Shown one piece after another: positions 3,478-15,352 of a stretch of 51,120 nt of DNA. How positions within the stretch are numbered: position 1 is the first letter of the stretch; the number at the start of each line of letters is the position of its first letter. Made by a program: the position numbers and the translations under genes. Under the pieces are notes generated by a model. The model saw only the letters and a program-made list of their open reading frames with translations. It was not told the origin of the DNA and did no database searches. Origin of the DNA: Caldithrix abyssi (GTDB lineage Bacteria; Calditrichota; Calditrichia; Calditrichales; Calditrichaceae); contig DRQG01000054.1 in NCBI GenBank assembly GCA_011369465.1, positions 1 to 51,120 on the forward strand, given 5' to 3'.

Positions 3478-4332
3478 ATTATGTTCCTTAATTAGCGATG
3501 TGAATATTAACCCATTGCCTGCTTTACTTCATTTATTGCCTTATTAATGACTAAAATAAAAAAACTAAGTTTAGTATAAAAATCTTTTTAGGGTATATTG
3601 GGCAGATATGAGGATAAAGAATACAATATTCTTAAAATGATTGTTGCGCACTGTGCAACAGGTAATTAGATTGATTGGTTCTCTTGGTAAATCTATGGGT
3701 GAAATTTAAAGATCAGATTGTTAATAATATACGACAGAACAAGCATTAATCCACAGATACCTACGAGTCATTGATCGTTTCGACTTTATTTCCCCGAAGA
3801 GGAATATGATCATAGCCCACCGATTCATCGATGGGAAAAAGACAGCAAAAATCGGTTCCCGTCCCGTCAGGGACGATTGAAGCGCTATTAAACATGGAAA
3901 ACAAATGTCTCTTTCGGGACATACTCGATTGGTTGGATTGGCTGTCCCCGTCATAAATGATGGGGCTATAAAAAGTGACTAATTATAACTTGCATTTTAT
4001 TTTAGAACTCTTTATGTTTCTAACTGTTTATGCATCAGCGATTTTAAACTTATCTTATTGTTTCGGTCACACGCGTTCAATCAAAACAATTTCTTTTATG
4101 AAAGATAATAATAACATCTATCTATCTAAACGTATGTTTTATTTTAATCTATTTCTACTTTTCCGACCTTTTAATCCTACTTTTATTAATCCTTTTCTGC
4201 GCAGGATGCGCTTATCCCAAGCTATGGTTTTGTAAGGTTAACGCAAAAAAATGGGACGACTGGTTCGGCTGACTTGTTTCATTTTTCTGTTCTTATAAAA
4301 TGAAATGATACGAAAAAAAGGAGAATAGATAG
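3478..4332. other. 855-bp intergenic region with hairpin cluster and leader palindrome
   Basis: Open frames here look random and I see no gene. Three hairpins sit in 3860-3965: CGTCCC-GTCA-GGGACG (3860-3875), TGTCTC-TTTC-GGGACA (3906-3921) and CCCCGTCAT-AA-ATGATGGGG (3946-3965, one wobble pair). Just upstream of the next gene, TTTCATTTT (4277-4285) and AAAATGAAA (4297-4305) form a 9-bp inverted repeat. It could be a leader hairpin or an operator for the cassette starting at 4333. Confidence 0.55.
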
Positions 4333-5558
4333 ATGAAAAAGAAAATAGTTCTCTTCGTGTTGACGGCATTTTTGTTTATTGCCGGCTGTTCGCAAATGAA
4401 AGATCAAAAGATAACCGCCCCGGAAAAATCCGATGCCGCCGTTATGCCGGACGGAATTTCAGGCGGAGATATACAAATACAAATGCAAATTTCCAAACTG
4501 GATATTTTAGACGCAATCTGGCTTTTGCCTTAAATGACGAAGCCGCGCTCAATTCTTTAAGCTCGGAAACGTGCAAAGCGGACAACAAAGAACGTATTAT
4601 TGATCTGAGTAAATGGTTAAATAAGGATGTCGTCGGAAACACCCTGGCTCAGCGTATGGCTTTAAGCGGCAATATGGAACAAATTGACGGTCGTCTAAAA
4701 CAGGTAACTGCTGAAGACTTTACAATGATAACCCAATCCTTAGAACCGATGGTCGACGTATATTTTCCCGTTGACGAGCACCGAAACAACTGGTACGAAA
4801 ACAAAGACAAGCTGCTTATTGCCGTTGTCCATCCGGCAAAGGAATGGGAACCGGCCACGGCTTACAAACTTAACGAAGAAAAAGTGCTGCTTGACCCCTA
4901 TACTCCGCCGGAAGAGCCGGTGCTGGTGGTCAGCCTGTGCGAGCATGGCGGCATTCATTTAGGAAATGCCATAAAAACCAACGCACCTATTGATGATGGT
5001 GATGGAGGAGGAGGCTCCGGAGGCGGTTCCGGTGGAGGAACGTCCTGTTCTGGACCAGGTGATGGTTGTAACGAACCTTTACAAGACGGAGCCAGAATTA
5101 TAATGCACAAGATGAAGCAAGATGTTTGTGAAGAAGGATGGGCATTAGGCGATCCTGAAATACGATATAGTATTAAAGAATCTAAAAATAAAAATTATCT
5201 GATTAGTAACGAAAATCCTGGCGATTTATGGGATTGTACTTATGGTGGATTTTTAGGACTTGAAATATTTCATGATTATAATTGGAAAACAATAAATCAC
5301 TATGATTTCTTTTGGCATTTTAACGATTATGGAAACTTTGTCGTTTATCATTTCTTTGAAAGCGATGGCGGTTGGCCGGGTAAAGAAGTTTCTTTCACAT
5401 TCTATGGAATTACATTTAAATTTGATATTGGAAATGATGACGAAGATATGGGAGCAAAAAGCATCCATAAAGATGATGGCTACTTAGAACCCGGTGTTGA
5501 CCAAGCATATGACTCGGGTGATATGCGTTTTTATATTGATTGGCAGAATCCAGATTAA
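4333..5558 (+). CDS. Cassette 1 module lipoprotein, frameshifted; DDED-type C-terminal domain
   Basis: The 5' frame begins MKKKIVLFVLTAFLFIAGC, a clear lipoprotein signal, but stops at 4531-4533. The protein continues in a different frame, open before 4503 and running to 5558 (LAFALNDEAALNSL, then QRMALSGNMEQ onward). A one-base frameshift therefore lies between about 4400 and 4530, giving an intended product near 408 aa. Parts in order: lipobox, a conserved body with LLIAVVHPAKEW and VSLCEHGGIHLG, a Gly/Ser linker (about 4998-5040), and a C-terminal domain with EEGWALGDPEI, an aromatic YGNF motif and NDDEDMGAKSI. The acidic pattern hints at a Ca-binding, C2-like beta sandwich, but this is inference. 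The body faintly recalls DUF3103 proteins, from memory only. It may be a pseudogene or a base-call error. Confidence 0.65.
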
Positions 5559-5580
5559 AAACTAATTGCATTGTATGGCT

Positions 5581-5606
5581 GAAGCAGGATGAAGTTATCC
5601 TGCTTC
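5581..5606 (+). terminator. Intercistronic hairpin after cassette 1 module
   Basis: GAAGCAGGAT-GAAGTT-ATCCTGCTTC is a perfect 10-bp stem located 22 bp after the module gene and 24 bp before the barrel start. There is no good U-tract, so it may attenuate transcription or stabilise mRNA rather than terminate fully. Confidence 0.55.
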
Positions 5607-5630
5607 GGCTTGCTATTTCTGGAGTTAAAA

Positions 5631-6452
5631 ATGTTACTAAGAGGATTAATAATTTATTTTATATTGACGAGAATATCCTTTTCTCAAACAGCCTTGGAAG
5701 ATTCTTCACTAGTAGATGAGATTGAATTAACATTTGGCATTGAGGGCGGGATTCTTAAAACCAGCCAGTATCTGGAACCATTAAAGGATTTTACCTATCA
5801 AGGAGAGCCTGTCGATCAAACTATTCCCTTTTCCTTCGCGCCTGTTTTCACCGTGCAGGCCGGTCTGCGCGGCTTCGGTTTCAATATTTTTGCTTTTATG
5901 AGAAACAGTTTTCTTAATTACGGCGCCGACGGAAACGTGTATATTAAGGACGGAATGGAAATATTTTCAACCGCTCAGGAATTGCTTGAATGGGGAGGGG
6001 GGCTTTATTACAAAATAAATCCGCGTTGGAGCGCCGGATTGCAGTACAGCAGGTACTCCGGAGAAATGAGAGGCCGGGAAAAGCCACCCGGACCTATGAG
6101 TTCTATCGATACTTATTTCTCTTTTAAACAGTTAAAGGCCAGCGCCTCTTATCATTTCGTCCTAAACGAAAAAACCTTCGTACCTCTGAAGGCCGGCTTC
6201 ACCTTATATTCGTATATGCCTAATGTTTCCGACCAAATTCTTATCGAATTTCCCGACCAATATACGACAGGCAATATACAATATCGCTATGGATATAACG
6301 GCAAGCCGTTTAACTTGACTTTAGAAGCGGAACTTCATTTCGATTTTGTTTTAACACCCCTACTGCGTTATGAATACCTGAGTATCGGCTCCACATACCA
6401 TATACATATGTTCAGCCTTTTGCTGCGCTGGATGATTCCCGCTGAAAATTAA
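5631..6452 (+). CDS. Cassette 1 outer-membrane beta-barrel protein
   Basis: About 273 aa with an N-terminal hydrophobic signal (MLLRGLIIYFILTRISFSQ), then alternating aromatic and polar strands such as GGGLYYKINPRWSAGLQYSR and LTLEAELHFDFVLTPLLRYEYL. This fits a barrel of roughly 10-12 strands. The ATG at 5631 has GGAG 7 nt upstream; the in-frame ATG at 5589 lies inside the preceding hairpin and is less likely. It sits between the module lipoprotein and the TonB receptor, with 19 bp to the latter, so co-expression with both is likely. It is a distant relative of the barrels at 10131 and 11478. I do not recognise a named family. Confidence 0.65.
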   Translation: MLLRGLIIYFILTRISFSQTALEDSSLVDEIELTFGIEGGILKTSQYLEPLKDFTYQGEPVDQTIPFSFAPVFTVQAGLRGFGFNIFAFMRNSFLNYGADGNVYIKDGMEIFSTAQELLEWGGGLYYKINPRWSAGLQYSRYSGEMRGREKPPGPMSSIDTYFSFKQLKASASYHFVLNEKTFVPLKAGFTLYSYMPNVSDQILIEFPDQYTTGNIQYRYGYNGKPFNLTLEAELHFDFVLTPLLRYEYLSIGSTYHIHMFSLLLRWMIPAEN

Positions 6453-6471
6453 ACTATGGAAAAGGGAATTT

Positions 6472-8679
6472 ATGAAAATCGCCTTACTGCTTACTTTTAT
6501 ATCCCTGAGTTTCCGTATTCTTTTCGGACAGGAAAAAATCACCGTTGCGGGTCGGCTGTATAACGAAGAAAGCAAGCAGCCGGTTCCTTATGCCAACATC
6601 GTTGTAAAGAACACCTTTATCGGTACCACCAGCGACGAGAACGGATCGTTTTCCCTGCAGCTGGAGGCGGGCGACTATACGCTGCAAATCTTCCATGTTG
6701 TATATTATGAGAAAGAAGTCCCGATTTCCTTAAAGCAAGGTAAAAACATCCATCTCTCTATAGCGCTTAACGAAAAGACCGAACAATTGGGTGTCATCAC
6801 CGTACAGGCCAGGCGGGATGCGGCGCTTTCCGGTTTTTACCTGAAGCCGTACAGCGTTATTAACGCGCCGGCCATAGGTGAACCGGATGTTGTGCGCGTA
6901 GCTGCCATGTTGCCCGGTATTACACAAATTAACGATTATAAGGCGGAGTTGAATATCCGCGGCGGGCATGCGGACCAAAACCAATTCATCCTGGACGGCG
7001 TCGAAGTTTTTAACCCGCAGCATGTAATGGGCATGTTCAGCGCCTTTAATTTATGGGCTGTTGAGGATATACGCATTTACACCGCCCGCTTTCCGGCCGA
7101 ATATTCCGGTCGTCTCAGCGGCGTCATTTCTCTTAACAGCAAGATGCCGCAGAATAAGCCCTATACCCGCGCACATCTTAGCTTGCTCAGTTCCGGAATT
7201 GCTTTAACCCGTAAATGGAACAAAACCGGCCTGCTGTTTGCCGCCCGGCGTACGTATCTGGATTTAGCGACTAAATTATTCGGCGGCAATTTCCCCTTTA
7301 ATTTCTACGATATTAATCTGAAGTTAACTCAGAATTTTACGGATGCTTGGAAGATATCGGCTATCGGTTTTCTCAATACCGACCGCATGGACGCCGACCC
7401 GTCACTATCCAAATGGGGCAATCGGATGGCCGCGCTTAAATTGTATAAGCAAAGGGACGGCACCGTCAAAAAAATGGCCCTCTTCTACAGCGGCTTTTTC
7501 AGCTCAGCGGAAGAGGGCGGCGGTTCTTCTTTTATTAATAATGATTTTAACATCAGCGGCCTTTTGCTGGAATATCGAAGGATTTTTAGCAAAACAATCG
7601 TTCGCTTCGGCCTTTCATTCAAAAAAAACCAAAGCGCCTACAAATGGTATTTGCAGGGAAATTTAAATGCCGATAAAATATTTTATTCCGGCGCTCCGCA
7701 GGCCTTCAATGAAAAACAATCAACGGATTTAATGGAAGGTTGGTACGGTCAGGATTTTCTTTTTCTGCCTCGTTTTCCGCTCACCATTAAATTACGCTAT
7801 ATATTACAAGATTATAAGCAGTCCTACTTGGCCCCAGGCCTGTTCCTTGATTGGCAGATTTTGCCGCGTTTAACGGTTACAAGCGGAGCGGAACGTATGT
7901 TTCAGTTTTTTGCCGCCGGCAGCGAAGCGCTGGAGTTCAACGCGCCCAGCCCGCTGTTCATCACAGACAAACCTTTATCCGCCGATCTATTCACTTTGGG
8001 CGCAGTATGGCAGTTAGGTTTGGACTATCAGTTAAAAAGCGAATTGTTTTACAAAAATTTCCATTCCCTGGTAAAACTGAACGCCGCAGCCGACTCCTAC
8101 CCAGCATTTTTATCCGGCAGTGGACGAGCCTATGGCGCGGATATTGTATTTGAAAAACTACGCGGCCGAATTACCTTTCAATTCGCATATTCCTACTTAA
8201 GCGCTTTACTGTGGTTCAACAATGTTTCGTCCAAACCAAATTGGGATGTGCCGCATGCTTTTAAAGGCTTGATGGGTTTCCGTTTCGGCCGTACCTGGCT
8301 GTTTAACGCCGCTTTTACATATCGCAGCGGTAATTTATATCAAAATGCTCTGGCTATGTTTTATGCCTCCGGGGCTACCGGTGACAGGAACTACAGCCGA
8401 ACCGATTTTAATCTGGTTACACCTTATTTTATTCTTGAGAATACGCCGTCAACCCGCTTTAACCCGTATACCCGGCTCGATCTGGCTTTGCGTAAAAAAT
8501 ACAAAGCCAAACATTTTGACTGGACGCTTTATATACAAGTACAAAATATTACCTTCGCAGATAATCCGTTGCGTATTGATTTTCGCGAACGGTATTTTGG
8601 CGGCACACCTAACCAGGATGAAGGCATAACCATGTCTATCCCCATCCTGCCTTCCGTAGGGGCGGAGTTTGAGTTTTAG
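6472..8679 (+). CDS. TonB-dependent-receptor-like protein, cassette 1
   Basis: A 735-aa outer-membrane protein. Residues 1-19 are a signal peptide. About 24-105 form a carboxypeptidase-D regulatory-like domain (VAGRLYNEESKQPVPYANI, TSDENGSF). About 125-215 form a plug domain with ELNIRGGHADQNQFILDGVE and a FPAEYSGRLSGVISL end. The rest is barrel, ending in an aromatic residue (EFEF). This is the SusC-like domain order but shorter, and I see no clear TonB box. A receptor of this type usually imports or exports a ligand across the outer membrane with TonB energy. The next gene starts 9 bp later. Its paralogue is at 12363. The ligand is unknown; the cassette context points to the secreted module or a product bound by it. 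Confidence 0.85.
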   Translation: MKIALLLTFISLSFRILFGQEKITVAGRLYNEESKQPVPYANIVVKNTFIGTTSDENGSFSLQLEAGDYTLQIFHVVYYEKEVPISLKQGKNIHLSIALNEKTEQLGVITVQARRDAALSGFYLKPYSVINAPAIGEPDVVRVAAMLPGITQINDYKAELNIRGGHADQNQFILDGVEVFNPQHVMGMFSAFNLWAVEDIRIYTARFPAEYSGRLSGVISLNSKMPQNKPYTRAHLSLLSSGIALTRKWNKTGLLFAARRTYLDLATKLFGGNFPFNFYDINLKLTQNFTDAWKISAIGFLNTDRMDADPSLSKWGNRMAALKLYKQRDGTVKKMALFYSGFFSSAEEGGGSSFINNDFNISGLLLEYRRIFSKTIVRFGLSFKKNQSAYKWYLQGNLNADKIFYSGAPQAFNEKQSTDLMEGWYGQDFLFLPRFPLTIKLRYILQDYKQSYLAPGLFLDWQILPRLTVTSGAERMFQFFAAGSEALEFNAPSPLFITDKPLSADLFTLGAVWQLGLDYQLKSELFYKNFHSLVKLNAAADSYPAFLSGSGRAYGADIVFEKLRGRITFQFAYSYLSALLWFNNVSSKPNWDVPHAFKGLMGFRFGRTWLFNAAFTYRSGNLYQNALAMFYASGATGDRNYSRTDFNLVTPYFILENTPSTRFNPYTRLDLALRKKYKAKHFDWTLYIQVQNITFADNPLRIDFRERYFGGTPNQDEGITMSIPILPSVGAEFEF

Positions 8680-8688
8680 GAGGTTTGA

Positions 8689-9399
8689 ATGAAGTATATC
8701 TTTCTTATTCTTGTATTTTTAGCGGCCATTTCCTGCCATGAAGATACTGTTACCAATCAGTATAATTACGAAGACCAATTATCCGTTTCGCTTATTATAC
8801 GTTCCAATCAGATAAAACAAACGGCTTTTATTACAAGAGTTAAACCTTTTGAGGCCGATCCTGGTCCTGCTTCTTTTGTTGACAGTGTGATACTTAATGT
8901 GGACAACCGTTTGTTTGAATGGATTCCGTCGGACTCGATGGGAGATAACCAAAATTGCTGGCAAAGCGTGATCGACGTTCGGAAATGCTTTAACTATTAT
9001 ACGGACAGCTTACTTGTTTTGGCAGGAAAGTCCTATAAATTATTGGCTTCTTATAAAACTAAAACTATTGAAGGTTTTACCGATGTCCCCGGCGATTTTA
9101 ACATAGCGGTAAAGGGACGCACCATTTCCTGGACAAAGAGTGAAAACGCCTATCTGTACCGTATTACCGGGATACATTTGGAAGGGGGAAATTTTATTAT
9201 CGAAAGGGTAACAACCGACTCATCCCTTACCATTAACGAGGAAAGTTTTGATCCCGGGCCTTACCGCATAACCGTAGAAGCGTTGGATAAAAATTTTTAC
9301 GATCTGGCCTTTGACCGCACCTATGCCGCCGGACTCAGCGGTGCGGTTGGTGTTTTCGGCAGCGTAACGGTAAAAACAATTGAAGCCAAAATAGAATAA
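8689..9399 (+). CDS. DUF4249-like lipoprotein, cassette 1
   Basis: A 236-aa predicted lipoprotein with signal MKYIFLILVFLAAISC and a lipidated Cys at about residue 16. The body follows the DUF4249 pattern: an early SVSLIIRSNQIKQ strand, YYTDSLLVLAGKSYKL, ITVEALDKNFYD and a C-terminal GLSGAVGVFGSVTV motif. In Bacteroidota these lipoproteins are coded next to TonB receptors with carboxypeptidase-like N-termini, the arrangement here. It is probably a surface-exposed or periplasm-facing partner of that receptor. It has a paralogue at 14606. The biochemical role of the family is not known to me. Confidence 0.75.
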   Translation: MKYIFLILVFLAAISCHEDTVTNQYNYEDQLSVSLIIRSNQIKQTAFITRVKPFEADPGPASFVDSVILNVDNRLFEWIPSDSMGDNQNCWQSVIDVRKCFNYYTDSLLVLAGKSYKLLASYKTKTIEGFTDVPGDFNIAVKGRTISWTKSENAYLYRITGIHLEGGNFIIERVTTDSSLTINEESFDPGPYRITVEALDKNFYDLAFDRTYAAGLSGAVGVFGSVTVKTIEAKIE

Positions 9400-9426
9400 T
9401 GTATTTATAGCAAAACATCTTTTTGA

Positions 9427-10080
9427 AAAAAAGACAAGCTGCTTATTGCCGTTGTCCATCCGGCAAAGGAATGGGAACCGGCAACGGCTTACAAACTTAA
9501 AGGAGAAAAAGTGCTGCTTGACGCCTATACGCCGCCGAAAGAGCCGGTGCTGGTGGTCAGCCTGTGCGAGCATGGCGGCATTCATTTAGGAAACGCCATA
9601 AAAACCAACACACCTATTGATGATGGTGACGGCTGAGGCTCCGGAGGAGGTGGCGGTTCCAACCACTCACGCGTTAATTTGAAGTGGGAAATTCTTCATA
9701 CGATTAAATTAGAAGATGATGGAGAAGGATGGTTGCGTGGTGATCCTGAAATATATTTTGTTACAGCTTCACCAAAAGTAGGTGAACTTACTAAAGAATG
9801 GTTGGATAATGTGAATGATGAAGATGTTACTTACACAGTAAACAGGTATATGTTCACCTGGGACTGGACAAACTACGGCGATTTTTATCGTCTTAAAGTT
9901 GGAGAAGATGATACCGGAGGATTGGGCAATGTCAAAATTAGTTATACCGGAGTTACCGTTACGATAGATTTAGGCGCTGACGACGAAGATTTAGGTTCAA
10001 AGATAATAAATAAAGCAGACGACTGGGGTGAATTTTATTATACTGGGAAGGTCTGGTTTAGCATTAAATATGAAGAATAG
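9427..10080 (+). pseudogene. Cassette 2 module: 5'-truncated copy with in-frame UGA
   Basis: Positions 9427-9657 are a near copy of 4802-5030, starting at the LLIAVVHPAKEW part; signal and N-terminal body are missing and the frame is closed upstream by TGA at 9424-9426. The frame then runs to 10080, interrupted only by TGA at 9634-9636. That codon aligns with the Gly codon GGA at 5007-5009 of copy 1, in the Gly/Ser linker. After the linker, about 9679-10080 code a divergent C-terminal domain (GEGWLRGDPEIYF, DWTNYGDF, ADDEDLGSKIINKADDWG). With no start or export signal it is probably a silent fragment or a donor module. The 134-aa piece could only be made from a TTG at 9679, which has no ribosome site. 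Confidence 0.75.
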
Positions 10081-10087
10081 TTACTTT

Positions 10088-10105
10088 GAGCGCCGAAAGG
10101 CGCTC
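10088..10105 (+). terminator. Intercistronic hairpin after cassette 2 module
   Basis: GAGCGCC-GAAA-GGCGCTC is a 7-bp GC-rich stem with a GAAA loop, 8 bp after the module stop and followed by an AT-rich run without a true U-tract. It occupies the same place as the hairpins after modules 1 and 3. Confidence 0.6.
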
Positions 10106-10130
10106 ATATTTAATTAAGAAAGTGAGTGAA

Positions 10131-11006
10131 ATGACAAAGGTAAAAATTATTGTTTTTTTCATCTTTGTATTCTTTTTTAGTAAAGTATTCTCTCAAGAAA
10201 TAACAATATTTGTGGAGCCCTTCGGAGAATATAGCTGGGCTGATTTCCGCTTTCCCGGTCATCTAGATCTTGGGGTAAAAAATGTTAATCATCAAACGCT
10301 TTATCCTAAAGCGGATTTTAGCGCGCATTTTAACCCCGGTTTTTTTATTAAAGCAAATTACAGAGTCATTTCATTAAAAAGCGGTGTATCTCTATATAGT
10401 TATATTTTTTCACTACCTACTTCCCTTTTTCCGCGTGGAATCGCTCCTCAATATGACGGTAAGGGAAACCCGCGTTATTATTTGGGAGATGGTTTCGTTC
10501 CTAGAGATGAACAAATAATGTTCGGATTAAAAAAAAGAGAGATTTATTTAGAGATCAATTATGGCGTTTCTAAACATATGGCGGTGGGTTTTCTATATCA
10601 TAACGCCAATAACAGCATCTTCAAAGATAGCAATGTAGAAATGCATGGCGCGGCCCTTGATACGCTGGGTTCTTATGTAAACCACGACCATATTATCAAT
10701 AATTATTTTCTAACGACTTCCTTCACATATAAAATCACTTCTTTTCTTATCAGGATAAACGTTAAATGGTCGCCTTATAGCTCATATCAAATTACATATA
10801 ATCACGAAAAGGGGAAAAATAATTATGACGGTTATACTTATAAACTTGGTGCCGGATTGGAATGGAAATCGCTGTTTTTAGAATATTACTATTCCGCCTG
10901 TTTTACCAAATCGGATTTGTTTTCTAACAGGGCGCATACCGTCCGGTTTGGATTTTCCTGGGAAATGCTAAATTTAAATATCGGTAAAATTGATATTTTT
11001 GAATAA
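10131..11006 (+). CDS. Cassette 2 outer-membrane beta-barrel protein
   Basis: About 291 aa. The start at 10131 gives a clean signal peptide (MTKVKIIVFFIFVFFFSKVFSQ); a TTG at 10086 would begin inside the hairpin. Strands alternate, and a YDGKGNPRYYL motif and the ending GKIDIFE are shared in form with the barrel at 11478 (FDGNGKTRYYL, TEIDIFH). The two are therefore paralogues. This half unit lacks its own TonB receptor and DUF4249 gene; the next gene is the third module. Function unknown; the constant pairing with a module gene suggests a secretion or anchoring partner. Confidence 0.65.
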   Translation: MTKVKIIVFFIFVFFFSKVFSQEITIFVEPFGEYSWADFRFPGHLDLGVKNVNHQTLYPKADFSAHFNPGFFIKANYRVISLKSGVSLYSYIFSLPTSLFPRGIAPQYDGKGNPRYYLGDGFVPRDEQIMFGLKKREIYLEINYGVSKHMAVGFLYHNANNSIFKDSNVEMHGAALDTLGSYVNHDHIINNYFLTTSFTYKITSFLIRINVKWSPYSSYQITYNHEKGKNNYDGYTYKLGAGLEWKSLFLEYYYSACFTKSDLFSNRAHTVRFGFSWEMLNLNIGKIDIFE

Positions 11007-11058
11007 GTACAAAAATTATCTTATTCTTTAAATTTTCATCAAATCCTAAGGCGAGATT

Positions 11059-11412
11059 GTGCATTACATTACCAAAACAATAGCCGCAATTATATGCATT
11101 TTTTCTTTACCGCTTAATAAAAACCTTTGTCGCATATGGATTGATAATGTTGATGATGACGGCCCATTATATACGCTTAACAAAAAATTATTCCGGTGGT
11201 ATTGGCGTGATTATGGCAATTGGCATAATCTGAATATTGCAGAGGCTGATGATGATTGGGACTATTCTATAAGTATTCTTGGCCAGGGAGTATCAATCAA
11301 TATTACAAACGACGATGAGTACCTTGGATCAAAAATTGTGAACAAGGACGATCCTTATAATGAGAAATATGAAACCGGCATGGCATATTTTAGAATAACT
11401 TATATTGATTAA
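11059..11412 (+). CDS. Cassette 3 module: short secreted DDED-type domain
   Basis: A 117-aa protein, GTG start with AAGG upstream. Residues 1-24 (MHYITKTIAAIICIFSLPLNK) could serve as a signal peptide. The rest aligns with the second half of the module domain: WIDNVDDDGPLYTLNK, WRDYGNWHNL, NDDEYLGSKIVNKDD and a final YETGMAYFRITYID. The GDPEI segment, the linker and the conserved body are missing, so it is truncated relative to copy 1. The stretch 11059-12400 is more AT-rich than the receptor genes on either side. It may be functional as a minimal secreted domain or may be a remnant. Confidence 0.55.
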   Translation: MHYITKTIAAIICIFSLPLNKNLCRIWIDNVDDDGPLYTLNKKLFRWYWRDYGNWHNLNIAEADDDWDYSISILGQGVSINITNDDEYLGSKIVNKDDPYNEKYETGMAYFRITYID

Positions 11413-11422
11413 CGATATGTGT

Positions 11423-11454
11423 GGGGTTGCTATATTTTAGCAACCCCCTTTTTT
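11423..11454 (+). terminator. Rho-independent terminator after cassette 3 module
   Basis: GGGGTTGCTA-TATTT-TAGCAACCCC, a 10-bp perfect stem, is followed by C and six Ts (11449-11454). It lies 10 bp after the module stop and 24 bp before the barrel start, so downstream genes would be expressed only by read-through or their own promoter. Confidence 0.85.
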
Positions 11455-11477
11455 CTACCTAATACGGAGTAATGAAT

Positions 11478-12350
11478 ATGATTTATAAAAAAATAGTCCT
11501 GTTTTTTTCAATAATTATACTTCTTAACTATACATACGCAGAAAAAAATACACTTTCTTTTTATCTTACGCCAAAACTATCTATTTCAAATTACAAAATG
11601 AATTTTTCTGGTATTTATACCTGGGATTTGCCAAAATTAAGCCAACAAAACTTTATGGCAACTTCAAATTTTAAACCATATTTTCAACCATCGCTTGACC
11701 TGAGAGTTACTTATAAAAACTTCGAAGCAGGTTTTGATTTTTACATGGAAAATCCTTTTGAAATTCATATTTTCTCTGCGGAGACAGAACAATTTGATGG
11801 AAATGGTAAAACACGATATTATTTAACTCAAGGAGATTCTGTCAAATATTTACAAACTGATGATCCGGTTAAATCCGGGTTGAGAACTCATAATGGAAGT
11901 CTTTACTTAAATTATAACATATCTAACTATTTTAAGATAAATTTGAGTTATAAATTCTATACACTTGAATATTATAAAATATCGCCTCCGGCAGGAATCC
12001 GTATTGATTCACTTGGCTATAGTATGAGTCATACCCAGAAAATCACCTTGGTCAATTTTGGTTTTGAATATAACTATTATTGGAATGATTGGAATTTTGG
12101 TTTTGAAGGCGAATACGCGCCGTTTTTAAATATGACTATAAAAGATATTTATAATAAAAATCATTATTATAATGGATATGCATATTTTTTAGGAACAAAA
12201 ATTGGCTGGAAACAATTTTTAGTTCGTTATACATATAATCATATTACAACGAATGATAACTCTTTTTCAAATATTTATCATCGCTTTGAAATTGGTTTTA
12301 TTTGGAAAGCTTTTAAGTTAGACTTAACGGAGATAGATATATTTCATTAA
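11478..12350 (+). CDS. Cassette 3 outer-membrane beta-barrel protein
   Basis: About 290 aa. The ATG at 11478 is favoured because GGAG (11466-11469) lies 8 nt upstream; the ATG at 11472 is only 2 nt away from it. A signal peptide (MIYKKIVLFFSIIILLNYTYA) is followed by strongly aromatic alternating strands. It is a paralogue of the barrel at 10131, sharing the RYYL motif and the IDIF ending. It is noticeably AT-rich. The TonB receptor gene begins 12 bp later, so these two are likely one transcript. The family is not recognised. Confidence 0.65.
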   Translation: MIYKKIVLFFSIIILLNYTYAEKNTLSFYLTPKLSISNYKMNFSGIYTWDLPKLSQQNFMATSNFKPYFQPSLDLRVTYKNFEAGFDFYMENPFEIHIFSAETEQFDGNGKTRYYLTQGDSVKYLQTDDPVKSGLRTHNGSLYLNYNISNYFKINLSYKFYTLEYYKISPPAGIRIDSLGYSMSHTQKITLVNFGFEYNYYWNDWNFGFEGEYAPFLNMTIKDIYNKNHYYNGYAYFLGTKIGWKQFLVRYTYNHITTNDNSFSNIYHRFEIGFIWKAFKLDLTEIDIFH

Positions 12351-12362
12351 TAGGGATTAAAA

Positions 12363-14597
12363 GTGGATATTTTTATTAAAATACTTTTCTTCATTTTAAC
12401 CTTTTTATCCGCATCTTTTGCCGGCTCAATACGAGGTATGGTTTATGGGGACTCAAAAAGCAATCCTTTGGCAGGAGTGAATATTTCTATATTAAACGCC
12501 TATAAAGGGACAACCAGTGATGAAAAGGGACTTTTTATTCTTACCGGTCTGGAATTTGGAAAGCAATACAAAATCCAGTTCAGTTATATCGGTTATGCCG
12601 ATACAATCCTTTTTGTTGAACAGGCGAAGGATAATCCCACGCCGTTGGAAATCATCCTCAAATCGGTGCCGCTGCGTATGAAAGGGATTGTTGTTTCGGA
12701 AGAACGGGAATCGAACAGGGCGCTCAACATTCAGCGGCTCAATCCCGAATCGATTAAAAACATGCCCTCCGCGGTAGAACAGGACGTGGTGCGCGCGCTT
12801 ACCTATTTACCCGGCGTACTGCAATACAACGATTTGAAAGGCGACATAACGCTGCGCGGCTCTCCGCCCTATCAAACCCAGTTTTTGATCGACGGGATGG
12901 AAATTTATTATCCCTGGCACATGTTCAGCGTTTTCGGGGTTTTTAACCTGGACGCCGTCGGCAGCGTACACAGTTACAATGCCGGTTTCCCGGCCCGATA
13001 CGGCGGGCGCAGCGGGGGCGTCATCGATATAACCACCTCTGCTTTCTCGGCTAAAAAAGACCTTAAAATTAATTTGAGCCTGGCCAGCATTTCCGCCTAC
13101 TACAAGCAATTACACGGTAAATGGGGCGTGATGCTTTCGGCGCGTAAAACTTATTTTGATATCCTCTCCAATTTCATTTATTTAATTCCCTTCGGTTTTG
13201 TGGACGCCAATCTCAAGCTTAATTATTTTATATCCAAAACATGGAATATCGAAATAAACGGCTACGCCAATAACGATTTTTTCACCATCCCCCCCGACCA
13301 GTTCACCGGCAACGAAAAATTCGATTTCGGCCGATTTTTCAAAACCTTTGTACGCGGCGAGGATAACTGGGGAAATCTTGCTTTAGGGCTTAAGCTAAAA
13401 TATGCAAAAAATAATATTTTCGGACAGCTTCGCCTTTATCGTACCACATATTATATGGATATTTCCGATTTTGTCGATAATCTTTTGGTGGATTACACCG
13501 TAAATCCTGCACTTGGTATCCGCTTTAATGAAAATATCTTTTTAACAGGCGGTATGCAGTATAAAAATATACACCAGAATTACCGCTGGGGATATGCCGG
13601 CAGCAGCGATATGAAAGACATCTATCCGGCCCTGGCCTATCCGTTTCGGATCAACGCCTCACAGGATTTATATACGGGATATTTTGATTTTGATATTAAA
13701 GCAGGTAATTTACTGCTGCAGCCCGGTCTGCGCTTAACTTCCTACCAGAATAACTGGTATCACGAGGAACGTTTCAGCGTTCGTTACTTCCTTTCCGAAA
13801 GGACGCAGCTTTACGGCCACGCCGGACGTTACGTACAATTCGGATTTGCTCCCTTTCAGAATATGGAATTTACTATCGGCACGCCGCTTCTGTTTATGAA
13901 GCGACCTTCATTAACCAATCATTTGAGCGTAGGTATTGAAAAACAGCTCAATCCCGTCATAAACTCCCGTTTGGATGTGTATTATAAATCCGTTGCCGAT
14001 CTTCCGGAAAACAAAGGGGATTTTCGTTACGATGTAAAAACGTATCAGGCCGACATCGCCGGTCTCGATCTGTTTATTCTTAAAGAAAAAGGTTATTTGA
14101 CCTGGCAGCTGTCCTATTCTTTTTTAAAAACACAAGTAAACGATGTTAATCATAGTTACCCCCTGGATTGGGATATTGCCCATAATATTTCTTTTCTTTC
14201 CGGCATAATGGTGGGCAAAGGCTGGTATTTTAATATGGGCTTCTTTTTTCATTCCGGCCTGCCCTACACGCCCGTTACCGCCGCGTATTACGGAATTACG
14301 GAAAGGGATTACTATTTTAACAAACAACTCGTTTACGGTTCCTACAACAGCGAGCGGCTGCCCAATTACCTGCGTTTCGATTTTGCCGTACGCAAACTCT
14401 ACCGTTTTGATACGTTCGATATGTTCTTGAAGGTGCAGGTAATCAACGCCTTTTACCGTGATAATGTTACCCGCATCGATTGGGAAGAATATTATTGGAA
14501 CGCTTCGCGCTTCAGTGCAAAAGGAACCGATAACGATGGTGTGAAACTGGGCGCTCCCATCATCCCCAGTGTCGGCCTGGAATTTATTTTTAGATAG
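12363..14597 (+). CDS. TonB-dependent-receptor-like protein, cassette 3
   Basis: A 744-aa paralogue of the protein at 6472. GTG start with AGGG upstream. Residues 1-20 are a signal peptide. About 22-100 form the carboxypeptidase-like domain (IRGMVYGDSKSNPLAGVNI, TSDEKGLF). About 125-220 form the plug, with DVVRALTYLPGV, ITLRGSPPYQTQFLIDGMEI and FPARYGGRSGGVIDI. The rest is a beta-barrel ending in GLEFIFR. The first third up to about 12650 is AT-rich like its upstream neighbour, after which GC content rises. This suggests a recombination joint near the end of the carboxypeptidase-like domain. The DUF4249-like gene follows within 10 bp. Confidence 0.85.
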   Translation: MDIFIKILFFILTFLSASFAGSIRGMVYGDSKSNPLAGVNISILNAYKGTTSDEKGLFILTGLEFGKQYKIQFSYIGYADTILFVEQAKDNPTPLEIILKSVPLRMKGIVVSEERESNRALNIQRLNPESIKNMPSAVEQDVVRALTYLPGVLQYNDLKGDITLRGSPPYQTQFLIDGMEIYYPWHMFSVFGVFNLDAVGSVHSYNAGFPARYGGRSGGVIDITTSAFSAKKDLKINLSLASISAYYKQLHGKWGVMLSARKTYFDILSNFIYLIPFGFVDANLKLNYFISKTWNIEINGYANNDFFTIPPDQFTGNEKFDFGRFFKTFVRGEDNWGNLALGLKLKYAKNNIFGQLRLYRTTYYMDISDFVDNLLVDYTVNPALGIRFNENIFLTGGMQYKNIHQNYRWGYAGSSDMKDIYPALAYPFRINASQDLYTGYFDFDIKAGNLLLQPGLRLTSYQNNWYHEERFSVRYFLSERTQLYGHAGRYVQFGFAPFQNMEFTIGTPLLFMKRPSLTNHLSVGIEKQLNPVINSRLDVYYKSVADLPENKGDFRYDVKTYQADIAGLDLFILKEKGYLTWQLSYSFLKTQVNDVNHSYPLDWDIAHNISFLSGIMVGKGWYFNMGFFFHSGLPYTPVTAAYYGITERDYYFNKQLVYGSYNSERLPNYLRFDFAVRKLYRFDTFDMFLKVQVINAFYRDNVTRIDWEEYYWNASRFSAKGTDNDGVKLGAPIIPSVGLEFIFR

Positions 14598-14605
14598 GAA
14601 TGAAT

Positions 14606-15352
14606 ATGAGAATGAAATATATTGCCTTCTTTTTTGCCCCGCTATTTTTTCTGACCGGCTGCGGCGAAGACCTGATCATTCAGCAGCAGCCCGTTCCGGA
14701 TGATTTCGGCATTTCGCTTATTCTTTATTCAAATCGACTGAAACAGGTGGGCGTTATTTCAAAAACTGTCGATCCTGCCCGAAACGTCCTTGACGATACG
14801 ACTCATTTTTACCCGCATGCCGTTTTGCGGGTGGACGATACGCCTTTCTCAGCCATTCCCAACGATTCGCTTTTTTTACGCAAATACAGAGATCGTGACT
14901 TTACCTACAATTACTATACGGACAGTATGAGCATCATCAGCGGCCAAACCTACCGTCTGCACATCGATTTGGGAAACGGCAGAACGATTACCGGTCAGAC
15001 CATTGTTCCGCAAGGAATTGAACCGGACAGTGTCACAGAATCGGAGTATTACTACTACATTTCCTGGCGGGGGCCGGATTCGTTAAGTTATTCCTGGATT
15101 TTATGGGCGAATGCCGGCACGCCGGAACATCCCGATTGGTCGCCTTTTATAAGGGGTTACTCAGGGCACGAAACCTATGCCAGAATTAAGAAGAAAAGTC
15201 TTATGGGGTTCAGCCAATTTTATATGTATGTACATACGTACGATTTAAACTACACCAATTACGTAACGGAAAAACGGCAAACCAGCGGTTTAAGCGGCGG
15301 ATACGGCGTTTTCGGCTCCATAAAATCGGATGGGTTTTGGGTGACGTTTTAG
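14606..15352 (+). CDS. DUF4249-like lipoprotein, cassette 3
   Basis: About 248 aa with lipobox FFLTGC near residue 18. The body parallels the protein at 8689: an ISLILYSNRLKQVGVI strand, YYTDSMSIISGQTYRL, and a GLSGGYGVFGSIKS end. ATG 14606 is preferred because AGGA (14596-14599) is 6-7 nt upstream; ATG 14600 is too close. The ribosome site overlaps the stop of the receptor gene, so the two are likely translated together. It closes the repeated cassette and converges on a minus-strand gene. Confidence 0.75.
   Translation: MRMKYIAFFFAPLFFLTGCGEDLIIQQQPVPDDFGISLILYSNRLKQVGVISKTVDPARNVLDDTTHFYPHAVLRVDDTPFSAIPNDSLFLRKYRDRDFTYNYYTDSMSIISGQTYRLHIDLGNGRTITGQTIVPQGIEPDSVTESEYYYYISWRGPDSLSYSWILWANAGTPEHPDWSPFIRGYSGHETYARIKKKSLMGFSQFYMYVHTYDLNYTNYVTEKRQTSGLSGGYGVFGSIKSDGFWVTF

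What the first reader, a model, noticed from the sequence alone, without database searches (positions are those of the whole stretch)
4333..15352. Repeated envelope cassette: module protein + barrel + TonB receptor + DUF4249-like lipoprotein
Three module genes share a C-terminal domain (GDPEI, aromatic YGNF-like motif, DDEDxGxK). Each is followed by a hairpin and then a barrel of 270-290 aa; units 1 and 3 add a TonB-like receptor and a DUF4249-like lipoprotein. Receptor and lipoprotein pairs are known in Bacteroidota, but the fixed link to this module and barrel is not one I know. A tempting reading is a surface-display or secretion system whose variable module is swapped between copies, like the orphan C-terminal modules of polymorphic toxins.
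Basis: partly seen in the sequence, partly recalled or inferred. Interest (0 to 1): 0.85.

Follow-up and report, generated by a model that had tools for sequence, protein, structure and literature searches.

The report
Swappable surface-receptor cassettes with displaced copies
A Calditrichota bacterium carries a surface lipoprotein whose business end appears to be exchanged together with the outer-membrane receptor and lid genes behind it, with two older displaced ends still lying downstream; this gene-shuffling pattern is known from bacterial toxin loci but appears here in what looks like a ligand-capture system.

Summary
The repeated cassette is real. The module gene is a DUF3103-family lipoprotein: conserved N-domain, Gly-rich linker, variable C-domain. 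It is followed by a hairpin, an optional small barrel, a TonB-dependent receptor (TBDR) and a DUF4249-family lid lipoprotein. The order recurs: all four genes in a Melioribacteraceae genome; module-TBDR-lid in three further Calditrichota loci (one in the window's own genome); module-TBDR in a Bacteroidetes genome (contig cut). The barrel is not constant.

The exchange idea is supported. Cassette 2 starts with a 228-bp copy (92%) of the end of module 1's N-domain and the start of its linker, then turns into a different C-domain; cassette 3 has only part of a C-domain. In another Calditrichota genome the N-domain matches module 1, but C-domain, TBDR and lid match this genome's second locus; AU tests reject a common history. 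So C-domain, TBDR and lid travel together, breaking at the linker, as orphan CDI/Rhs modules do. No toxin-like or secretion part was found.

Unexpected: poly-C tracts (14 and 9) sit at the start of both Melioribacteraceae genes, out of frame, suggesting phase variation.

Best reading: an exchangeable ligand-capture lipoprotein of a TBDR-lid complex. Architecture well supported; function inferred.

The parts
4117..4128 (+). (TCTA)3 repeat in an upstream element conserved with the C88 locus, which has (TCTA)6
   Evidence: the C88 tract is the only (TCTA)4+ in the genome
4098..4272 (+). possible small ORF across the repeat, ending KKWDDWFG-stop; its ATG (4098) is in another frame than its tail
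   Evidence: conserved with C88, third codon positions vary most but the numbers are small; the pattern occurs only at the two DUF3103 loci
4333..5558 (+). module gene 1: DUF3103-family lipoprotein; signal peptide in frame of 4333, body in frame of 4509
4799..5026 (+). 228-bp direct repeat, copy 1 (end of N-domain and start of Gly-rich linker)
5091..5558 (+). C-domain (variable module) 1
5573..5613 (+). hairpin after module 1
   Evidence: z -4.7
5631..6452 (+). barrel 1 (listed ORF from 5589; start at 5631 more likely); OMP_b-brl Pfam hit
6472..8679 (+). TonB-dependent receptor 1 (CarboxypepD_reg-like and Plug domains)
8689..9399 (+). DUF4249-family lipoprotein (lid) 1
9426..9653 (+). 228-bp direct repeat, copy 2, without the rest of the N-domain; TGA in frame at 9634-9636
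9679..10080 (+). C-domain (displaced module) 2
10087..10106 (+). hairpin after module 2
   Evidence: z -3.9
10131..11006 (+). barrel 2
   Evidence: homologous to barrel 3
11122..11412 (+). C-domain (displaced module) 3, distal part only
11421..11454 (+). hairpin with T run after module 3 (terminator-like)
   Evidence: z -3.5
11472..12350 (+). barrel 3
12363..14597 (+). TonB-dependent receptor 3
14600..15352 (+). DUF4249-family lipoprotein (lid) 3

Best explanation
The locus encodes a multi-part uptake receptor: a TBDR with a DUF4249 lid lipoprotein, plus an accessory DUF3103 surface lipoprotein whose C-domain captures the ligand and hands it to the receptor. The lipoprotein's 5' part (upstream region, signal peptide, N-domain, linker) stays in place as a platform. 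The ligand-specific set (C-domain, optional barrel, TBDR, lid) is replaced as a unit by recombination in the DNA of the N-domain end and Gly-rich linker. A replaced set is pushed downstream and decays, which gives the ordered array seen here: current set 1, truncated set 2, older set 3. A hairpin after the module gene would let the lipoprotein outnumber the receptor, and in some genomes simple repeats at the gene's start would switch the lipoprotein on and off. Shown: gene order, recurrence, the junction, chimerism, co-inheritance of C-domain with TBDR and lid, hairpins, repeats. Inferred: surface location, ligand capture, phase switching, role of the hairpin, order of events.
For: Gene order recurs in other loci and phyla. 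228-bp near-identical N-domain/linker DNA with sharp edges, then different C-domains and barrels. G013 chimera: N-domain with module 1 (55%), C-domain, TBDR and lid with C88 (45%, 53%, 44%); AU p 0.0013 (N), 0.0002 (C), 7e-5 (TBDR). DUF4249 next to this kind of TBDR is a proposed transporter-lid pair (PMC11003636); accessory lipoproteins assemble on TBDR-lid cores (PMC7618045); HpuAB is a phase-variable lipoprotein-TBDR pair (PMC4703857, PMC3786947). Hairpins. Poly-C tracts.
Against: No ligand, no structure (pLDDT 46) and no interface shown. Module 1 is frameshifted in this assembly and so may be off, mutated or misassembled. DUF3103 also occurs with no TBDR on hand (L018). The chimera rests on one genome pair, and few loci are available. 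The barrel's role is unexplained.
Confidence: 0.5

Rival explanations
1. Ligand-receptor self-recognition: the C-domain is itself the ligand, displayed on or shed from kin cells, and the linked TBDR and lid are its cognate receptor, so that the cassette defines a recognition type, as polymorphic pheromone-receptor loci do.
For: C-domain, TBDR and lid are inherited together and diverge together; poly-C tracts at the lipoprotein gene start.
Against: No sign that the lipoprotein is released or processed; an uptake complex would need the same matching of parts.
Confidence: 0.12
2. Antigenic variation: exposed domains are exchanged and switched to escape phages or predators that use the receptor complex; the transported ligand is secondary.
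For: Repeats at the gene start and exchange of presumably exposed domains fit diversifying selection; two of the other three poly-C/G tracts in G040 lie at a surface-protein gene and at a polysaccharide-flippase gene.
Against: Says why exchange is favoured, not what the parts do; compatible with the best explanation as its selective cause. No phage or predator data.
Confidence: 0.13
3. Ordinary tandem duplication and divergence of an uptake operon, with later loss of pieces and a local gene conversion at the linker.
For: Units 1 and 3 are paralogous along their TBDR and lid.
Against: About 95% in-register identity inside the repeat against 34% protein identity of the C-domains directly after it; barrels 1 and 2 unrelated by sequence; the G013 chimera.
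Confidence: 0.15
4. Polymorphic toxin locus: the C-domain is a toxin delivered to neighbours and the downstream genes give immunity.
For: Conserved N-part, exchangeable C-part, displaced copies downstream, as in CDI and Rhs loci (PMC4927057).
Against: No toxin domain in Pfam, NCBIfam or PADLOC; no exporter partner; the partners are a receptor and a lid, not a small immunity gene; the C-domain is shared by all copies as one diverging family rather than swapped for unrelated folds.
Confidence: 0.06

Closest known systems
TBDR-DUF4249 lid pairs (BT2172-BT2173 type; PMC11003636)
   Same: TBDR gene directly followed by a DUF4249-family lipoprotein.
   Different: Here preceded by a DUF3103 lipoprotein, often a barrel, and organised as exchangeable cassettes.
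Utilisomes, SusCDEF-type accessory lipoproteins (PMC7618045)
   Same: Additional lipoproteins encoded with a TBDR and its lid.
   Different: No SusD/E/F homology detected and no glycan enzymes next to it; no complex shown.
Neisseria HpuAB (PMC4703857, PMC3786947)
   Same: Lipoprotein and TBDR encoded together; poly-G tract in the reading frame makes expression phase-variable, compare poly-C tracts in L017 and L026.
   Different: No sequence relation detected (PDB searches); no lid or cassette array in HpuAB; ligand unknown here.
CDI/Rhs orphan modules (PMC4927057)
   Same: New 3' module displaces the old one downstream; displaced module keeps a stretch of the upstream gene's sequence at its 5' end.
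   Different: No toxin, immunity gene or CdiB/Rhs part; what moves is a binding-type domain with receptor and lid.
Pfam DUF3103 (PF11301)
   Same: N- and C-domain segments match; several relatives or segments exceed the cut-off.
   Different: The family has no described function; window modules 1 and 3 fall below the cut-off on their own.

Membership tests
DUF3103 (PF11301) | Pfam gathering score of 25 bits | tested here: met
   Module 2 frame 31 bits with its TGA read through; L018 45.1, C88 29.5, L027 47.2. Module 1 alone 12-13 bits, but 55% identical over 135 aa to G013, which passes (32.1).
DUF4249 (PF14054) | Pfam gathering score of 28.5 bits, or homology to members | tested here: met
   C88 38.8 and G013 46.9 bits; window lipoproteins only through profile comparison, 98%, 1.3e-13.
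TonB-dependent receptor | Plug domain and 22-strand barrel | tested here: met
   Plug domain in both window receptors; PF00593 barrel domain over cut-off in C88 and L014 receptors, which are 23-25% identical to the window's. TonB dependence itself not testable here.
CDI/Rhs polymorphic toxin | C-terminal toxin domain | tested here: not met
   No toxin family hit in Pfam, NCBIfam, PADLOC.
CDI/Rhs polymorphic toxin | Displaced orphan 3' modules with homology to the upstream gene | tested here: met
   228-bp homologous 5' end on module 2.
CDI/Rhs polymorphic toxin | Exporter (CdiB) or Rhs shell and an immunity gene | tested here: not met
   None among the genes of the locus.
SusCD/RagAB system | SusC/RagA receptor model and SusD lid | tested here: not met
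   TIGR04056 only 43 bits against a cut-off of 368, from the N-terminal domain alone; lid is DUF4249-family, not SusD.
Phase-variable gene (homopolymer contingency locus) | Hypermutable repeat at the gene start whose length sets the reading frame | tested here: inconclusive
   Repeats and out-of-frame starts seen in L017 and L026; length variation in a population not testable here. Module 1's own frameshift is not at a repeat.

The most novel reading that the evidence does not exclude
A non-toxin polymorphic module system: a surface recognition ligand (the DUF3103 C-domain) and its cognate TBDR-lid receptor are exchanged as one typing cassette with an orphan archive, and the ligand is phase-variable, forming a self/non-self or partner recognition system at the outer membrane of Calditrichota and relatives.
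Probability: 0.12. Interest if true: 0.85.

Novelty: new variant of a known kind. Interest (0 to 1): 0.6.

Why it matters
Module displacement with an orphan array is described for toxin loci. Here the same architecture appears in a receptor system, and it indicates which parts must match each other (C-domain, TBDR, lid), an inference from evolution that can be tested directly. It also gives a context-based role for DUF3103, for which the paper library held no report, and adds DUF3103 to the parts that go with DUF4249-lidded receptors.

Tried and rejected
(1) Structure of the DUF3103 protein (7 sequences) and of the C-domain (10 sequences): mean pLDDT 46 each, not usable; fold search had no match at E <= 0.001. 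My impression that the C-domain is C2-like (VWEDDxGLxGxDD) remains an untested lead. (2) Sequence searches of solved structures with three profiles: nothing. (3) Barrel 1 as a homologue of barrels 2/3: not shown; barrel 1 with the Melioribacteraceae barrel only a hint (z 4.8). (4) Plasmid-borne relatives: none. (5) Known RNA element at the locus: none. (6) More members in Acidobacteriota: none beyond L018's genome in 396 genomes. (7) Defence-system families: none. (8) Literature: nothing on DUF3103, one paper naming DUF4249, none joining Calditrichaeota, TBDR and lipoprotein.
Full report
WHAT IS THERE. The window lies on contig C54 of a 4.31-Mb draft genome. The organism is a member of Calditrichota: two genomes of its own phylum hold the very contigs that the named collection lists as Caldithrix sp. 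and Calditrichaeota bacterium. Between 4333 and 15352, on the + strand, there are three head-to-tail units. Unit 1 has a module gene (4333-5558), barrel, TBDR and lipoprotein. Unit 2 has a truncated module and a barrel. Unit 3 has a partial module, a barrel, a TBDR and a lipoprotein. The TBDRs carry CarboxypepD_reg-like and Plug domains. The last lipoproteins of units 1 and 3 give no Pfam hit themselves, but as a profile with two relatives they match clear DUF4249 members (98%, 1.3e-13).

THE MODULE IS DUF3103. The weak Pfam hits of modules 1 and 2, the whole-genome search and the relatives identify the module protein as a divergent DUF3103 lipoprotein: signal peptide with lipobox, N-domain ending in ...PPEEPVLVVSxCEHGG, a Gly-rich linker, and a C-domain with W(x)nGDPEI and acidic motifs. 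The 'module domain' of the finding is this C-domain. Both C-domain subtypes (DDEDxG type and WEDDxGL type) are homologous by profile comparison (95%, 4e-8).

RECURRENCE. The same genome has a second DUF3103 gene on contig C88, followed by TBDR and DUF4249 lipoprotein without a barrel. Of 40 Calditrichota genomes only two others have DUF3103, and both have module, TBDR, lid (L013, L014). In L014 a barrel and a further TBDR follow the lid. A Melioribacteraceae genome has the complete four-gene unit module, barrel, TBDR, lid (L017), and its TBDR and lid are the closest relatives found of unit 1's (33% and 34%). A Bacteroidetes genome has module then TBDR, where the contig ends (L019). An Acidobacteria genome has DUF3103 with no TBDR on hand (L018). 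All six C-domains detected in the phylum lie in these loci or in the array. The link of module to TBDR to lid is therefore real across at least two phyla; the barrel is an optional part, so far only next to DDEDxG-type C-domains (modules 1-3 and L017). The family is rare and patchy: 4 of 294 genomes in the class of L017's genome and 1 of 396 Acidobacteriota.

EXCHANGE. In the window, 4799-5026 and 9426-9653 are 92% identical over 228 bp; in-register identity is about 95% over most of it and at background level outside both edges. The stretch covers the end of the N-domain and the start of the linker. Beyond it the C-domains are only 34% identical in protein, and barrels 1 and 2 show no sequence relation. 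Copy 2 has no upstream N-domain and carries a TGA in the linker. Module 3 lacks even the first half of the C-domain. Independent evidence comes from G013 (L013): its N-domain is 55% identical to module 1 and 32% to C88, but its C-domain (45% against 25%), its TBDR (53% against 23%) and its lid (44% against no BLAST match) side with C88. AU tests reject G013+C88 for the N-domain (p = 0.0013), G013+mod1 for the C-domain (p = 0.0002) and G013+tb1 for the TBDR (p = 7e-5). The C-domain and TBDR trees divide the loci alike, although the branches of the C-domain tree are weak. The simplest account is replacement of everything from the linker to the lid as one unit, with the older sets displaced downstream. 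This is the first of two models proposed for orphan cdiA-CT/cdiI arrays (PMC4927057). I describe it as the same kind of displacement; I do not file the locus as a CDI or Rhs system, because toxin, immunity gene and exporter were looked for and not found.

EXPRESSION FEATURES. A strong hairpin lies between the module gene and the next gene in seven of the eight units examined, with unrelated sequences but z-scores of -3.1 to -6.3; the exception is L019. Only the one after module 3 looks like a full terminator with a T run. I infer partial termination that makes more lipoprotein than receptor. At the 5' end, both DUF3103 genes of the Melioribacteraceae genome have a poly-C tract (14 and 9) a few codons after a start codon with a good ribosome-binding site, and in both the start is out of frame with the body. 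That 3.8-Mb genome has only five runs of nine or more C/G, so two at the starts of its only two detected DUF3103 genes is far beyond chance. Two of the other three tracts are at an exported surface protein and a polysaccharide flippase. In L027 the start and body frames also differ, around a TC-rich stretch. In the window's genome, the regions upstream of both DUF3103 loci share a conserved element with (TCTA)3 or (TCTA)6; the latter is the only (TCTA)4+ tract in the genome. The element contains a possible small ORF ending KKWDDWFG-stop, in a different frame from its ATG. Module 1's own frameshift near 4500-4530 is not at a repeat and may be a mutation or an assembly error. Phase variation is thus a strong inference for the Melioribacteraceae genes and only a possibility here.

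FUNCTION. A TBDR and a DUF4249 protein form a conserved operon in many genera and were proposed to work together (PMC11003636, which cites a preprint on lids of TonB-dependent transporters). Accessory surface lipoproteins assemble on TBDR-lid cores in utilisomes (PMC7618045), and in Neisseria a phase-variable lipoprotein-TBDR pair, HpuAB, takes haem from haemoglobin (PMC4703857, PMC3786947). By analogy, I take the DUF3103 C-domain as the ligand-capture part of such a complex. That explains why C-domain, TBDR and lid would be exchanged together and why the N-domain need not be. The alternative that the C-domain is itself the ligand of the receptor is not excluded. Structure prediction gave no usable model, so the fold and any interface remain unknown.

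VERDICT. The barrel is demoted to an optional part, and secretion or toxin delivery is unsupported. The locus is a new variant of a known kind: a lidded TonB-dependent receptor system with an exchangeable capture lipoprotein and an orphan-module array.

Noticed in passing
L017:7776-7789 and L026:3753-3761: Poly-C tracts of 14 and 9 a few codons after the start of both DUF3103 genes of one Melioribacteraceae genome, each with the start out of frame with the body; only five such runs in the whole genome.
   Followed up: yes
L032 and L040 (G040:C16:243101, G040:C40:7559): Other runs of nine C/G in the same genome lie at an exported surface protein gene and a polysaccharide-flippase-like gene, also typical of phase-variable loci.
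   Followed up: partly
window:4098-4272 and L006 upstream of 8149 (minus strand): Element conserved upstream of both DUF3103 loci with a TCTA repeat and a possible small hydrophobic ORF ending KKWDDWFG; function unknown.
   Followed up: partly
window:15952-17848 (-): MjaI-type restriction endonuclease and an N6/N4 DNA methylase with a C-terminal SNase-like domain lie on the other strand, just beyond a DUF6913 gene, next to the array; perhaps a variable region.
   Followed up: partly
L019:6754-7461 and L028:599-982 (-): LuxR-type regulator genes with hydrophobic C-terminal tails lie directly upstream of the DUF3103 genes in two other genomes.
   Followed up: no
L014:4326-5440: After the module-TBDR-lid unit a barrel and the start of another TBDR follow without a module; perhaps a second displaced cassette.
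   Followed up: no
L027:2324-2474: Start codon and body of this DUF3103 gene are in different frames, with a TC-rich stretch between them.
   Followed up: no
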